64,000 nucleotides of DNA from a virus, in the IMG/VR virus record IMGVR_UViG_3300027754_000060, positions 1 to 64,000 of that record; one strand, given 5' to 3'. The first letter of the stretch is position 1, and each line of letters opens with the position of its first letter. The notes below the pieces were generated by a model. It made no database searches. It saw nothing but the letters and a program-made list of their open reading frames with translations, and was not told where the DNA came from. This document shows, piece after piece, positions 1,807-31,212 of this stretch. The translations under genes and the position numbers were made by a program.

Positions 1807-2145
1807 ATGGTAGCAGATCCAAATACATTAATAGATTTCTGGCAAAATATAGCTCTTGCTGTTACTAGTGTGATACTTACTATGGTTGGATTCTGGTTTA
1901 CTTTTGGTCGCCATATGATTTCAAAATTAGAAGTAGTAGAATTGATATCCCTACATAGCCCATATCTTCAAGATAGACAAACTATTATGAATAGGCTGGA
2001 AGACAACAAAGTTATGCAGCAGGCCTTCTCATCTGCTCTGCAAAAAAATACAGAAGTTATGGGTGAACTTAAAATTCAAATAGCTGTACTAGGTAAAACA
2101 CTAGACAACTTAGAGCGCAGGATAGAAGAAGATGAAGAAGAATAA
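1807..2145 (+). CDS. Single-pass membrane protein with C-terminal coiled coil
   Basis: This 112-residue protein has one hydrophobic helix at about residues 14-32 ([19 protein letters not shown]). A long amphipathic, charge-rich helical tail follows, with heptad-like spacing ([21 protein letters not shown]). The layout, a short N-terminus, one membrane helix and a coiled coil, is what one sees in inner-membrane spanins and holin accessory proteins, but no diagnostic motif fixes that. The start has only a weak ribosome site. The gene overlaps the next by 14 bases. Confidence 0.6.
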
Positions 2146-3217
2146 TGAAAATAAAATTAGAGGCTTTACTCTTGTTGAGTTATTGGTAGTAATTGCAATT
2201 ATAGGAACATTAGTAGGACTCCTATTACCAGCTGTACAAAGCGCTAGAGAAGCTGGACGAAGAAATTCTTGTCTTAATAATCAAAATCAGTTAGGAAAAT
2301 CAGTTATTGCTTTTGATGGACAAAAAAAATGTACTCCGGGGTGGCGAAATGATCATCCTAATAGACTTGTCCTATCAAATATATCTTCCTTATATAAAAC
2401 AGTATCTTGGCCCATAATGCTTTTGCCAAATCTAGAAAGAAGAGATGTTTATAGGTTGTGGGAATCTTCTGATATTAATGGTCTTCCGGGTGCTGTTAGT
2501 CCATTTATTAGTATATTTGTTTGTCCAACATCTCCACCTGACTCTCCTGGACAACCAACTCTAAGTTATGCAGCTAATATAGGATCTTGTAGTTATAATG
2601 GGTCAGGATCAGTATCAAGTCCATATACTCAATATAGGGGTGATGGGGTCATGTTAGATAGTGTTGGATTACCATCTAGTAATATAAGTCCATCTAGAAA
2701 TAATTTAGATATAATTAGTAGTGGAGATGGAACCTCTATGACCCTATTATTTTCTGAAAAAAGTGGCCCCTTATATTCCCCCCAAGCATCTTATGATGTT
2801 GTTCCACAAGCTATTAATTCTAATACTAGAATGATTAATTCAATGCTAACTGGTATTTCTTATCCCGTTGGAGGAACGAGCTTGCCCGTTATTCCAGTTC
2901 CAGGATTTGGGGTATTTGAACAACTTTCAGATGTAAAAATAATTAATAGTTTAGATAATAATAGGGCTGGATACTTAGGTCACCCATCTTCAAATCATTC
3001 TGGTGGAGTTGTTGTAACATATTGTGATGGTCATACTACCTTTTTAAAAGACACTATTAGTCCATTAGTTTATACCCATTTAATAACTTCTAGTACTATT
3101 TTTGACAATATTTCTAACTCATATTTATCCAATAGTCCTTGTATTAAAGGCAATTTAGTAGATTCTCCAGGATCATCAATTCCTAGCAGAAAGCCACTAT
3201 CTGAATCTGACCTATAG
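2132..3217 (+). CDS. DUF1559-type prepilin-like protein
   Basis: This 361-residue protein opens with a type IV prepilin leader: basic [10 protein letters not shown], then G11 and F12 at the predicted cleavage site, Glu at position 5 of the mature protein, and a hydrophobic helix ([14 protein letters not shown]). The sequence after it ([20 protein letters not shown]) and the C-terminal [18 protein letters not shown] match the DUF1559 family, whose C-terminal H-x9-DG-type signature sits here. DUF1559 proteins are greatly expanded in planctomycetes and are probably cell-surface pseudopilins. Maturation would need the host prepilin peptidase, as none is encoded nearby. In a phage this could alter the host surface or act in virion attachment; that is inference. 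Confidence 0.85.
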
Positions 3218-26844: not shown

Positions 26845-28716
26845 ATGAAACCCTCTTACTCCGTACTTCACTGTCATTCTCACTACAGCCTATTGGATGG
26901 GATTAGTAAACCAAGCCAGATCGCCAAAAGATGCGAGGATATAGGAGTAAACTCATGTGCTATTACTGATCACGGATCTATCTCTGGGTGCGTCCAGTTC
27001 TATTCCGCTATGGCTGCTAAAAAGATCAAACCAATTCTTGGCTGCGAGATGTATCTTTGCAAAGAAGACTCAAAGATCAAAACAAAAGAAAACAGTCATC
27101 TTAGTCATTTTATTATTTTAGCAAAGAATCTCAAAGGATGGAAAACTCTTATAAAGATTATTTCTGAATCAAATCTAGAAGAAAATTTTTACCATAAGCC
27201 AAGACTAAGCCTTGACAGACTATCAGAAATGTTAGATGGTAACATTATAGGTTTTTGTGGACACATAGGGTCATATATCCACGACTTAATTAAGATCACA
27301 GAGAGAGAAAATATGATCAAGGAGAGTACTGAATTTGTCCACAAGATGAAAGATGTTTTTGGTAAAGATAATTTTTTCCTAGAGAGTCAGCTTATGGACG
27401 CTCAAAATAATAAAGAGCAAATATCTTTAACAGAATTTATTCGAGACATAGGACAAAAAACTGACACTCGGGTGGTATGTACTCCAGATGCTCATTATTG
27501 TGAAAAAAAAGATGCTGTGGATCAAAGGGTTCTTTTATGCAATAGTATGAAAACAACACTCTCAGATATAAGTTCTAAAATTTTAAACGACGAAGATATT
27601 CCTCTGGGCTGCTTTTTTAAATCTGATAATTATCATATTTTATCAAACGAAGAGATGTACGATATCCACACAGAAGAAGAAATAAACAATACCATATATC
27701 TTAGTTCTTTAATAGAGGACTACAACATATTACAGAAACCTTCTTTACCCCCATTCGATTGTCCAAATGGGCAAAATCCAGATGAATATCTAAGACAATT
27801 GTGTAGAAATGGTTGGAGAGAAAAGATTCTCAATATTATTCCTGTTGAACATCATGATGAATATACAAATAGGATCAAGTATGAACTAGAAATACTTCAA
27901 CAGGCTGGATTATCTAGCTATTTTCTTATAGTCGAAGATATTGTAAAATATATTAAAGGGGAAAAATGGCTACCCGGTCCAGGAAGAGGATCAGCAGCAG
28001 GATGTCTTGTTTCATATTTATTGGGAATAACATCAATAGATCCAATAAAATATAATCTGATCTTTGAAAGATTTTATAACTCTGGAAGAAACTCAGAAGG
28101 TAGTATTTCTATGCCAGATATTGATGTTGATGTTCCCATTAATAAAAGAGAGAACATTATTAATTATATTAGAAATAAATATGGGTCAGATAAAGTCTCT
28201 CAGATTATAACCTATAATACTATGAAGGGTAGAGGAGCTTTAAAAGAAGTTTTAAGAGTTTATGGAGATGTTTCATTCGAAGAGATGAATAGAATAACAA
28301 AAAATATACCCGATGAGGCTAAGATAGCGGATGAGTTGCAAGAGATGAAACAGGACACTGGAGAGGCATCTATTATTAGATGGGCATTAGAAAACAATGT
28401 TGAAAAACTCAAAGAATGGTGTAGTATATCTGAAGATGGCTCATTGGTCGGGCCACTGTGCAAAAGATTCGAGCAAGCAATTCGACTAGAGGGAATCAAG
28501 TCAAATCAATCCAAACATGCTGCTGGTGTCGTTATTAGCAGCACAGAACTCAGAGATATTTGTCCCATGATCTATGATGCAAAAAACAATCAGCACTTAG
28601 GAGGCATGGAAATGCAAGATCTTGAAAATCTAGGAATCATAAAGTTCGACATATTAGGCATAGCAATGTTAGACAAGGTTATGATTATTTCAGATATTCT
28701 TAAAAACGGAGAGTAG
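26845..28716 (+). CDS. dnaE (N-terminal part): DNA polymerase III alpha subunit, N-terminal half (PHP and palm)
   Basis: This 623-residue protein has a PHP domain (HCHSHYSLLDG, TDHGSISG) and then the family C polymerase palm. Catalytic Asp425 and Asp427 lie in MPDIDVDVP, the third catalytic Asp602 in KFDILGIAML, and the PGRGSAAG block lies before them. The protein stops 21 residues after Asp602. E. coli alpha continues directly into fingers and beta-binding regions, which here are coded by a separate gene at 29581. All catalytic Asp are thus in this half, yet it cannot be active alone without the fingers. Three bases separate it from the nuclease gene. Confidence 0.92.
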   Translation: MKPSYSVLHCHSHYSLLDGISKPSQIAKRCEDIGVNSCAITDHGSISGCVQFYSAMAAKKIKPILGCEMYLCKEDSKIKTKENSHLSHFIILAKNLKGWKTLIKIISESNLEENFYHKPRLSLDRLSEMLDGNIIGFCGHIGSYIHDLIKITERENMIKESTEFVHKMKDVFGKDNFFLESQLMDAQNNKEQISLTEFIRDIGQKTDTRVVCTPDAHYCEKKDAVDQRVLLCNSMKTTLSDISSKILNDEDIPLGCFFKSDNYHILSNEEMYDIHTEEEINNTIYLSSLIEDYNILQKPSLPPFDCPNGQNPDEYLRQLCRNGWREKILNIIPVEHHDEYTNRIKYELEILQQAGLSSYFLIVEDIVKYIKGEKWLPGPGRGSAAGCLVSYLLGITSIDPIKYNLIFERFYNSGRNSEGSISMPDIDVDVPINKRENIINYIRNKYGSDKVSQIITYNTMKGRGALKEVLRVYGDVSFEEMNRITKNIPDEAKIADELQEMKQDTGEASIIRWALENNVEKLKEWCSISEDGSLVGPLCKRFEQAIRLEGIKSNQSKHAAGVVISSTELRDICPMIYDAKNNQHLGGMEMQDLENLGIIKFDILGIAMLDKVMIISDILKNGE

Positions 28717-28720
28717 TATC

Positions 28721-28900
28721 ATGCAAAAAACAATGGATGAATTAGCAGTTGGAGAAATGTTTACTGTTAATGATGTTAAATATGTTAAGATTTCAGATGT
28801 GAAAGTAAGTTGTTGTCGTAGCGTAAATTGTCAGGAACACGACAACTCTGGTTCTAGGCACTTTTTCCCAGGAAATACAATAGTAACAACCAATGGCTAA
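28721..28900 (+). CDS. Small Cys-containing phage protein inside the split polymerase locus
   Basis: This 59-residue protein starts at ATG 28721 and overlaps the exonuclease start (28893). It reads MDELAVGEMFTVND, then VKVSCCRSVNCQEHD and a final FFPGNTIV. I have the impression of a recurrent small phage protein with a Cys-Cys block and FFP-NT ending, but cannot name it. It has no membrane segment. Its position between the two polymerase halves suggests an accessory role, but that is only context. Confidence 0.6.
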   Translation: MQKTMDELAVGEMFTVNDVKYVKISDVKVSCCRSVNCQEHDNSGSRHFFPGNTIVTTNG

Positions 28901-29588
28901 TTCTCAGAAGATTTGTGTTTTTGATTTAGAAACAGATGGCGTAAATCCAGATGTTTGTAGTCCAGTTCAAATAGCTGCATTAATGATAGATCCTTATAAA
29001 TTAGAGATTATTAAAAACTCAGAGTTTAATATTAGTCTCAAGCCATCTGCTCTTGAAGATAAGCCAGATTATAGATATGAAGATAGTGATGTTTTAGATT
29101 TTCACGCAAAGGTTAGATCTTGCGATAAGTCTATCATATTAGAACAATGGCAAGGATATCAGAAACAAGAACATGGATGGAAAATGTTTATATCCTATTT
29201 AGACATATATCATACCAGAAGTAGTAAAAAATCTTGTTTCTCAGCTCCTATTGCTGCTGGATATAATATAAATAGGTTTGATATTAGGATAATAGACAGA
29301 ATGAGTAATAAGTATGGCAATACAAATAAAGAAGGCAGGAACAATCTTTTTTATCCAAGAGATGTAATAGATCTAATGAATATGGTTTTTTATTGGTTTG
29401 AGGCTAATACTGAACTTAAAAGTTATACTCTGGATAATGTAAGAGAATACTTTGGTTTATCCAAAGAGGGTGGTCATGATGCTCTCAAAGATGTTAAGGA
29501 TACAGCCGAACTACTAATTAGATTTATGAGACTGCATAGAAATACTGCCGCTAAAGTAAAGTTTAAAGGATCTTTTTTAAATGTCTAG
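28893..29588 (+). CDS. DnaQ-like 3'-5' exonuclease (DEDDh)
   Basis: This 231-residue protein has the Exo I motif FDLETDG (Asp11, Glu13), Exo II in AAGYNINRFD, and Exo III HDALKDVKDT with the HxxxxD spacing of the DEDDh class. This is the epsilon-type proofreading exonuclease of polymerase III. It sits exactly between the N- and C-terminal halves of the polymerase, overlapping the second by eight bases, so the three are likely translated together and assemble into one enzyme. The length is normal for an epsilon protein without its alpha-binding tail. Confidence 0.9.
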   Translation: MANSQKICVFDLETDGVNPDVCSPVQIAALMIDPYKLEIIKNSEFNISLKPSALEDKPDYRYEDSDVLDFHAKVRSCDKSIILEQWQGYQKQEHGWKMFISYLDIYHTRSSKKSCFSAPIAAGYNINRFDIRIIDRMSNKYGNTNKEGRNNLFYPRDVIDLMNMVFYWFEANTELKSYTLDNVREYFGLSKEGGHDALKDVKDTAELLIRFMRLHRNTAAKVKFKGSFLNV

Positions 29589-31212
29589 TGAGTTTGCTTT
29601 TGATTGTGGATGTAAATTTAAGATTCTTAACAATATAGTCTCTGAAGAATTTCCAAGAATAGAATTTTCTGGAAAGCTAGATGAACTAGATCTTTCGTGC
29701 CAAAGAACATGGGATATGATTTCAACAGGAAATACCAAGGGGTGCTTTCAGTTGGAATCTAGACTAGGGCAGTCAATGGCCAAAAGACTTAAACCTGGAA
29801 ATATTGAGGAGCTATCTGCTCTGATAAGTATTTTAAGACCGGGTTGTCTAGAGGCTACAAGAGATGGAAAAAGTGTTTCTAATCATTATATTGATAAAAA
29901 GAATAATGAAGAGAGTATTGATTATTTTCATCCTATTTTAGAACAATCTTTGAAAACTACCTATGGAGAGATGATATATCAAGAGCAGTCAATGGAAATA
30001 GCTAAAACAATAGCGGGGTTTGATCTTAAAGAGGCAGACGTTCTTAGAAAAGCTATTGGTAAGAAGAAACCAGAACTTATGGCCCAAATGAAACTTAAGT
30101 TTTTAGACGGATGTAAAAAACAGGATATCGTTGACGTTCAAACGGCAGAACAGATATTCGACTGGATAGAAAAAGCCCAAAGATATCAATTTAACAAGTC
30201 CCATTCTGTTAGTTATGCAATGAACGCTTATTTATCAGCATATGCTAAAGCTCATTTTCCAAAAGTCTTTTTTGCCTCATATCTAAGATTTGCCAGAGAC
30301 AAAGTAGATCCACAGAGAGAAATAAAAGAACTAGTAAAAAATGCTTCAGAGATGGATATAGATGTTTGCGTCCCAGATTTACGAAAACTCAACAAGCTTT
30401 TTATTCTTAAAGATAAAAAAATATATTTTGGTCTAACTGACATCAAAGGAGTAGGAGAATCTGTCTACAATAAGATTTTAGATATTACTAAAGATAAGAA
30501 TATATATGAGATGACATGGGCAGATATCTTAACTGGAATCCTGCTAAAAATAAACTCGACAGCTAGTAAAGCTATGGTTTCATGCGGGGCCTTGGATTTT
30601 CTTAAAAAGAATAGAACAGAACTATTATTTCAGCTTGAAATATGTTCGGGCCTCACCAATAAAGAGCAAGATGCTTTAAGGGAGCTTACAGAAAATAATC
30701 CAAAAGAATCTCTAGAAAATAATATATCTGCTATCAAAACCAAGGCTAGGATTACAAAAAAGAGACAGGATGTAATAGATTCTATAGTGAGATCTATACA
30801 AGAGCCCCCATATTCCCTAGTAGATAAGATAGAATGGTTATCTGATTCTGAAAATGCTCTATTAGGAGTATCTATAACATGCTTTAAGATAGAGACCTAT
30901 GATATTAGTATGACTAATTGCGACTGTAAGGAGTTTAAAACTACTAGAATCAGGAATAATATAATAATAGCTGGAGAAATAAGCTATATAGGGATAACAA
31001 AAACTAAAAAGGGCGCTAGTCCAGGATTAGAGATGGCTTTTTTGACAATAGAAGATAGAAATGGAAGCTTGGATTCTGTGGTATTTTTCCCAGAATGCTT
31101 TAGTAAGTATAGAAATTATCTATTCGAAGGTAATGTACTTATTTTTATGGGGTCTAGAGGAAAAAATCAGGATTCGCTAATCGTTGAAAAATGTTTTATT
31201 CCATCCTCTTGA
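29581..31212 (+). CDS. dnaE (C-terminal part): DNA polymerase III alpha subunit, C-terminal half
   Basis: This 543-residue protein continues the polymerase from where 26845-28716 ends. After about 35 unrelated residues (FAFDCGCKFKILN) it reads LDLSCQRTWDMISTGNTKGC, then FQLESRLG, LRPGC, YGEMIYQEQSM, RKAIGKKKPELMAQM and FNKSHSVSYAM, all hallmarks of the alpha fingers and thumb. The C-terminal 120 residues look like an OB-fold (IIAGEISYIGITKTKKG, LDSVVFFPECF). Both halves must associate for synthesis. The reading frame and start are supported by its own ATG and a four-codon coupling to the exonuclease gene. Confidence 0.9.
   Translation: MSSEFAFDCGCKFKILNNIVSEEFPRIEFSGKLDELDLSCQRTWDMISTGNTKGCFQLESRLGQSMAKRLKPGNIEELSALISILRPGCLEATRDGKSVSNHYIDKKNNEESIDYFHPILEQSLKTTYGEMIYQEQSMEIAKTIAGFDLKEADVLRKAIGKKKPELMAQMKLKFLDGCKKQDIVDVQTAEQIFDWIEKAQRYQFNKSHSVSYAMNAYLSAYAKAHFPKVFFASYLRFARDKVDPQREIKELVKNASEMDIDVCVPDLRKLNKLFILKDKKIYFGLTDIKGVGESVYNKILDITKDKNIYEMTWADILTGILLKINSTASKAMVSCGALDFLKKNRTELLFQLEICSGLTNKEQDALRELTENNPKESLENNISAIKTKARITKKRQDVIDSIVRSIQEPPYSLVDKIEWLSDSENALLGVSITCFKIETYDISMTNCDCKEFKTTRIRNNIIIAGEISYIGITKTKKGASPGLEMAFLTIEDRNGSLDSVVFFPECFSKYRNYLFEGNVLIFMGSRGKNQDSLIVEKCFIPSS

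What the first reader, a model, noticed from the sequence alone, without database searches (positions are those of the whole stretch)
26845..31212. DNA polymerase III alpha split into two genes around a DnaQ-like exonuclease
Seen: the first gene holds PHP and all catalytic Asp (Asp425, Asp427, Asp602) and stops 21 residues after the last one. The second resumes with LDLSCQRTWDMI and FQLES, carrying the fingers and OB-fold. Between them lie a 59-residue gene and a DEDDh exonuclease, all overlapping by a few bases. Known: bacterial alpha is one chain; PolC carries its exonuclease inside the chain. Inference: the locus has become a modular polymerase whose halves and proofreader are co-translated and assemble.
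Basis: partly seen in the sequence, partly recalled or inferred. Interest (0 to 1): 0.72.

Follow-up and report, generated by a model that had tools for sequence, protein, structure and literature searches.

The report
Phage replicase split into two genes
A large group of uncultured phages builds its main DNA-copying enzyme from two separately made halves, with its proofreading enzyme encoded between them; the cut lies exactly between two structural domains, and in dozens of relatives mobile DNA has broken the same gene again at other places.

Summary
At 26845-31212 a DnaE-type Pol III alpha is encoded as two proteins: A (PHP + palm/thumb, all three catalytic Asp) and B (fingers + HhH + OB). 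A 59-aa protein (S) and a DEDDh exonuclease (X) lie between them. No assembly error, frameshift, intron or intein was found. The same break occurs in 165 of 165 distinct junctions, nearly all from other viral contigs (down to 40% identity), always with X between. The A-to-B offset falls in all three phases and spans 627-4747 nt. The same script of 77 bacterial DnaE loci fused. The split family is one clade; in 12 records (97-244 kb) no PolA, PolB or beta clamp was found beside it. Best reading: a two-subunit replicase assembling non-covalently that arose once, probably through homing-endonuclease invasion as in T4 gp39/gp60. Assembly is untested. Split Pol III alpha has a partial precedent in jumbo phages (PMC7824862), so this is a new variant of a known kind. 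Side-finding, in relatives but not in the window: 35 distinct A genes carry a stop codon plus 2-6 further nt just inside the start, behind a strong hairpin, as expected of short ribosomal bypassing like T4 gene 60.

The parts
26845..28716 (+). A: N-terminal half of DnaE/Pol III alpha (PHP + palm + thumb), 623 aa
   Evidence: Pfam PHP and DNA_pol3_alpha; phrog_405 positions 43-615; PDB alpha subunits matched, e.g. 2hpi
26869..27495 (+). PHP metal-site residues H9 H11 D18 H43 E68 H88 H140 D215 H217 of A (complete HHDHEHHDH set)
   Evidence: residue check across the family; motif as defined in PMC12926913
28117..28125 (+). Catalytic D425 and D427 (PDIDVD)
   Evidence: sequence; invariant in A2
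28648..28650 (+). Catalytic D602 (KFDILG), 21 residues before the stop of A
28651..28716 (+). C-terminal tail of A (consensus LDKIMTI..LL..G) and stop: break site, palm side
   Evidence: aligns to Thermus alpha near residue 634
28721..28900 (+). S: 59-aa small beta-barrel protein of unknown function, invariant CC (VSCC..N motif)
   Evidence: small ORF found in 195 of 203 loci with A and X (two of those, L100 and L251, picked a different ORF); model pLDDT 93; weak EF-P/eIF5A domain I-like fold
28893..29588 (+). X: DEDDh (DnaQ-like) 3'-5' exonuclease, 231 aa
   Evidence: Pfam RNase_T, phrog_192 DNA polymerase exonuclease subunit, DEDDh residues conserved
29581..31212 (+). B: C-terminal half of DnaE/Pol III alpha (fingers + HhH + OB), 543 aa
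   Evidence: Pfam; phrog_405 622-1054; Foldseek to 4iqj 4e-22
29581..29661 (+). N-terminal extension of B (F.Y.CGC.F...I.F), conserved in most but not all members
   Evidence: absent in L020 and L406/L407, CGC motif absent in L396/L397
29674..30123 (+). Fingers domain of B, starting near where E. coli alpha residue ~583 aligns

Best explanation
The locus encodes a two-subunit C-family replicase. A supplies the PHP domain, palm and thumb with the catalytic Asp triad; B supplies the fingers, HhH and OB domains that hold incoming dNTP and template. The break falls in the linker between palm and fingers (just before E. coli alpha residue ~583), so each product is made of whole domains. The two chains are made separately, each with its own start, and associate non-covalently into a working polymerase. 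X acts as the epsilon-like proofreader beside a PHP domain that also keeps a full metal site. The split arose once in the ancestor of this phage clade, most likely when a homing-endonuclease gene landed in the linker, as for T4 gp39/gp60; S and X now occupy the gap. Shown: the split, its conservation, its single clade, and the absence of PolA and PolB from the records searched. Inferred: physical assembly, proofreading by X, the homing origin.
For: 165/165 distinct junctions split with X between, 0 fused; 76 of 77 bacterial loci with both halves are fused by the same script. Split rows are one side of a branch with support 100 against unsplit bacterial and phage DnaE. A and B each have their own start; the gap phase is 0/1/2 in 57/42/66 cases. 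Catalytic residues conserved. 12 records have one Pol III alpha and no PolA or PolB. A-B divergence correlates at 0.886, above A-SSB at 0.70. HNH-like homing-endonuclease ORFs sit at the A|S junction in L030, L100 and L184; other mobile elements interrupt A at three further sites.
Against: No complex was modelled and no biochemistry exists. Correlated divergence also follows from shared ancestry. Most of B's N-terminal extension, a candidate docking element, is missing in a few members (L020, L406/L407). No homing-endonuclease remnant lies in the window's own junction. The IMG/VR records may be incomplete, so 'only polymerase' is limited to what is held.
Confidence: 0.82

Rival explanations
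1. The halves are joined after transcription or translation (intron splicing, split intein or frameshift), giving one chain.
For: Relatives do carry a split intein (GPGRG|SAAG) and an intron-like LAGLIDADG insert elsewhere in A, and cultured phage KLEB27-3 has a DnaE interrupted near this region by an HNH gene.
Against: No Hint domain in A, S, X or B and no Rfam intron at 28400-29900. X and S are conserved genes filling the gap; the phase varies 0/1/2; unrelated genes can lie between the halves. KLEB27-3 breaks inside FQIE, not at the domain linker.
Confidence: 0.05
2. The halves work apart: A as a PHP nuclease or nucleotidyltransferase, B as a DNA-binding protein, and the host enzyme replicates the phage.
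For: The PHP metal site of A is complete; B holds HhH and OB DNA-binding domains.
Against: Both the polymerase triad in A and the fingers core in B are strongly conserved; the genes sit in a replication module with helicase, primase, PD-(D/E)XK nuclease and SSB; both halves lie on the same strand in the same order, with X between, at all 165 junctions.
Confidence: 0.08
3. Assembly error or decaying pseudogene.
For: None beyond the rarity of the arrangement.
Against: Independent metagenomes from many sites show the same break; catalytic residues are conserved.
Confidence: 0.01

Closest known systems
DnaE-type DNA polymerase III alpha (bacteria; phage phrog_405)
   Same: PHP, palm with three Asp, fingers, HhH and OB in the same order and all present
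   Different: Two chains instead of one; ends after the OB fold, so no C-terminal tau-binding region; S and X genes lie between the halves
Minimal split Pol III alpha of group 2.2 jumbo phages (PMC7824862)
   Same: Pol III alpha divided into an N-terminal NTP-binding and a C-terminal template-binding protein
   Different: There the two genes are distant, lack the other Pol III domains and accompany a PolB; here the genes are clustered, PHP and OB are kept, and no PolB was found
Cyanobacterial split DnaE (split intein)
   Same: dnaE in two genes
   Different: Those halves are joined by trans-splicing; here no intein is present, and from memory their break is much further downstream (not tested)
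T4 topoisomerase gp39/gp60 (PMC5009743)
   Same: Replication enzyme split by a homing endonuclease into separate genes; gene 60 also carries a bypass element
   Different: Different enzyme; the endonuclease is absent from the window's junction and seen in only a few relatives
PolC / DnaE with DnaQ exonuclease
   Same: DEDDh proofreader tied to a C-family polymerase
   Different: X is a separate protein encoded between the halves, not a domain inside the chain

Membership tests
C-family DNA polymerase (DnaE) | PHP domain and palm with catalytic Asp triad | tested here: met
C-family DNA polymerase (DnaE) | Fingers domain and OB fold | tested here: met
C-family DNA polymerase (DnaE) | Single polypeptide chain | tested here: not met
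   separate ORFs in 165/165 junctions
C-family DNA polymerase (DnaE) | C-terminal (tau-binding) region after the OB fold, as in E. coli alpha | tested here: not met
   B profile (538 positions) ends about 16 positions after its match to E. coli 1055 of 1160
C-family DNA polymerase (DnaE) | Polymerase activity and beta-clamp use | not testable with these tools
   no bacterial-type clamp gene in 12 records; activity needs experiment
Minimal split Pol III alpha of group 2.2 jumbo phages | PHP and other Pol III domains absent, halves encoded far apart, PolB present | tested here: not met
   definition from PMC7824862
Split-intein DnaE | Intein halves flanking the break | tested here: not met
   no Hint domain in A, S, X or B; present in relatives at a different site
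DnaQ/epsilon proofreader (X) | DEDDh active site | tested here: met
DnaQ/epsilon proofreader (X) | Binding to the alpha subunit | not testable with these tools
   no complex modelling available
T4 gene 60-type bypass (start of A in relatives, not in the window) | Take-off codon followed by a stop, and a 5' stem-loop | tested here: met
T4 gene 60-type bypass (start of A in relatives, not in the window) | Landing codon that matches the take-off codon | tested here: inconclusive
   exact match in 9 of 35 distinct elements, another Ser codon in 13, only NCN (ACT, GCT, GCC) in 13
T4 gene 60-type bypass (start of A in relatives, not in the window) | Bypass product detected | not testable with these tools
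   needs translation assay or proteomics

The most novel reading that the evidence does not exclude
In this phage lineage the essential replicase gene is kept working although mobile elements broke it at several sites, each solved by a different means: non-covalent subunit assembly at palm/fingers (the window), a split intein at GPGRG|SAAG, an intron-like LAGLIDADG insert at PDIDVD, and, in 35 distinct relatives, short programmed ribosomal bypassing at the start of A. In the last case translation begins at ATG, reads M[D/G][V/M]..Y.PLHVHS, meets a stop, skips 5-9 nt including the stop, lands on an NCN codon and resumes at [H/M][Y/F]SLLDG. This would be a large natural family of short stop-hops with a 5' hairpin.
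Probability: 0.6. Interest if true: 0.87.

Novelty: new variant of a known kind. Interest (0 to 1): 0.64.

Why it matters
It indicates that a bacterial-type replicative polymerase can run as a heterodimer cut exactly between palm and fingers, in a whole clade of large environmental phages. That would give separately expressible halves for studying how the fingers domain moves and how proofreaders dock, and a clear case of mobile DNA turning one subunit into two. The bypass element in relatives, if it works as it looks, would give a broad natural set of short bypass signals; the 2016 review read here (PMC5009743) says that no natural in-frame stop-hops were known, and six of the 35 elements are in-frame by gap length (6 nt) plus one of 9 nt.

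Tried and rejected
Programmed frameshift or readthrough between A and B: rejected (gap of hundreds of nt, phase varies, other genes between). Group I intron at the break: no Rfam match. Intein at the break: no Hint domain. Assembly error: rejected by independent contigs. Same break in cultured phages: of the closest ones inspected, some are contiguous and others interrupted elsewhere (KLEB27-3 in FQIE, Jayan in the palm); not all 1355 records were inspected. S as a recognised family: no Pfam or INPHARED hit, only weak PHROG matches. Bacterial-type beta clamp, PolA and PolB in 12 records: none. For the bypass-like starts: a simple +1 or -1 shift is rejected because gaps of 5-9 nt need different shifts; reinitiation downstream is unlikely because some members have no ATG/GTG/TTG there (L003 reads CTA CTG) and it would drop two PHP metal ligands while the other seven stay conserved in 42/42. 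One bacterial control not called fused (L328) was not followed up. Kazlauskas and Venclovas 2011 (NAR gkr564) was not held, so a mention of split phage Pol III alpha there cannot be excluded.

Full report
Observation. In the window, four same-strand genes follow each other: A 26845-28716, S 28721-28900, X 28893-29588 and B 29581-31212. A carries PHP and the Pol III alpha palm/thumb, B carries fingers, HhH and OB, and X is a DEDDh exonuclease. On a phage DnaE profile A covers 43-615 and B 622-1054, so the two together make one full core. The window is part of a 97,085-base virus record.

The break is real and old. A search with A found 31 viral contigs, with the same layout wherever the contig reaches far enough. 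Profile searches with A and B, and a search with a distant member found in a MAG, added more. Reduced to distinct sequences across the junction, 165 of 165 are split with X between and none is fused; B identity goes down to 40%. As a positive control the same approach scored DnaE loci from genome contigs: 76 were fused; of the three not fused, two (L250, L251) are members of this phage family and one (L328) was not followed up. This removes assembly error and recent mutation.

It is not joined by known means. The distance from the A stop to the B frame falls in all three phases (57/42/66) and ranges from 627 to 4747 nt; in L105 and L339 about 3.6-3.9 kb lies between X and B. No Hint domain appears in any of the four proteins, and no Rfam intron family matches at 28400-29900 (one sub-threshold snoRNA match on the other strand).

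Where the cut lies. The A profile runs to about Thermus alpha residue 634, and B resumes at about E. coli residue 583. From general knowledge of the E. coli structure this is the boundary between palm and fingers. Most B proteins add an N-terminal piece with F.Y.CGC.F, but a few lack it (L020, L406/L407), so it is not essential. The AlphaFold model of B (pLDDT 86) matches Pol III alpha structures (4iqj, E 4e-22).

Function. The catalytic Asp triad of A, the DEDDh set of X and the nine PHP ligands (HHDHEHHDH, the 'active' motif of PMC12926913) are conserved across the family (the few apparent changes at D425/D427 come from an insert at that point). Both a PHP and a DEDDh proofreading site thus look intact. 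In 12 records (97-244 kb) this is the only Pol III alpha, with no PolA, PolB or bacterial-type clamp. Divergence of A and B is more strongly correlated (0.886) than A with SSB (0.70). I infer a non-covalent two-subunit replicase; physical assembly is not shown.

Origin. On two trees the split rows form one side of a branch with full support against unsplit bacterial and phage DnaE (the second tree is a quick one with some long phage branches), so one origin suffices. HNH-like homing-endonuclease ORFs (identified by reading the motif; Pfam gives no confident family) lie at the A|S junction in L030, L100 and L184. The review PMC5009743 describes T4 gene 39/60, where a homing endonuclease split a replication enzyme in the same way. 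This origin is an inference.

S. S is found in nearly all members, models as a small beta barrel (pLDDT 93) with weak likeness to EF-P/eIF5A domain I (E 0.058) and better likeness to small uncharacterised phage proteins (E 6e-4, TM 0.84). Its role is unknown.

Side-finding: bypass-like starts. In many relatives the A gene begins ATG, 13-14 codons ending PLHVHS, then an in-frame stop, and the A frame resumes 5-9 nt later (counting the stop) at an NCN codon followed by the conserved [H/M][Y/F]SLLDG. The gap lengths 5/6/7/8/9 occur 1/6/12/15/1 times among 35 distinct elements, so no single frameshift explains them; take-off is TCT or TCC and the landing codon is NCN in all, exactly matching the take-off in 9. 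A Shine-Dalgarno-like sequence precedes the ATG. The region folds into a hairpin ending one codon before the stop-flanking Ser codon's end: mean -18.3 kcal/mol in 33 stop-bearing starts against -2.9 in 112 stop-free starts (examples). The search pattern fixes the 3' arm but not the 5' arm, which is present in 30 of 33 and in none of the 112. The outer stem is 98.8% paired with one co-varying pair (few pairs vary, so covariation is modest). The element is patchy on the tree (15 changes among 70 tips), and HNH-like ORFs sit beside it in L013 and L017. Seven downstream PHP ligands are conserved in 42/42 such genes while the first two are encoded before the stop. This is what short ribosomal bypassing would look like; it needs an experiment. 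It is not in the window.

Other breaks in relatives: a split intein with a nuclease-like ORF at GPGRG|SAAG in L025-L027 and L029/L030, and an intron-like insert with a LAGLIDADG-like ORF at PDIDVD in L051 and others (no Rfam match). This gene is a favoured target of mobile elements.

Verdict. Because a different split Pol III alpha is already described in jumbo phages (PMC7824862), I rate it a new variant of a known kind.

Noticed in passing
L003:7951-8012, L004:7951-8012, L050:3230-3290 and about 55 viral contigs: Start of A reads ATG..PLHVHS-stop, then the conserved SLLDG frame resumes 5-9 nt later (stop included); a strong hairpin covers the region up to the codon before the stop's Ser codon. 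Looks like short programmed ribosomal bypassing. Not in the window.
   Followed up: yes
L025-L027, L029, L030 (A residues 382/383): A is further split by a split intein (CFVPDT...VEV-stop; ...VHN|SAAGC) with a nuclease-like ORF between the intein halves, the 'fractured gene' layout.
   Followed up: partly
L051, L053, L054, L057 and others, about 1.1 kb at A residues 428/434: Intron-like insert with a LAGLIDADG-like ORF at the catalytic PDIDVD codons; no Rfam intron match.
   Followed up: partly
L030:10929-11612, L100:2130-2813, L184:7866-8561: HNH-like homing-endonuclease ORFs at the A|S junction.
   Followed up: partly
window 2132-3217: DUF1559/SBP_bac_10 prepilin-like gene, also in the records of L105 and L403; from memory this family is expanded in Planctomycetota, a lead to the host.
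   Followed up: partly
L016:5799-6743: The PD-(D/E)XK gene upstream of A is interrupted by about 945 nt between residues 169 and 170.
   Followed up: no
OM634661.1 (L410): Cultured Bacillus phage KLEB27-3 has DnaE annotated as two CDS with an HNH gene between, broken inside FQIE; intron-like, no Rfam match.
   Followed up: partly
L251: A 41-46% identical member of the split family sits on a contig binned into a Lokiarchaeota MAG; probably a misbinned phage.
   Followed up: no
L358/L359: B extension reads CDCEF instead of CGC.F, and about 1 kb of extra sequence lies between A and X.
   Followed up: no
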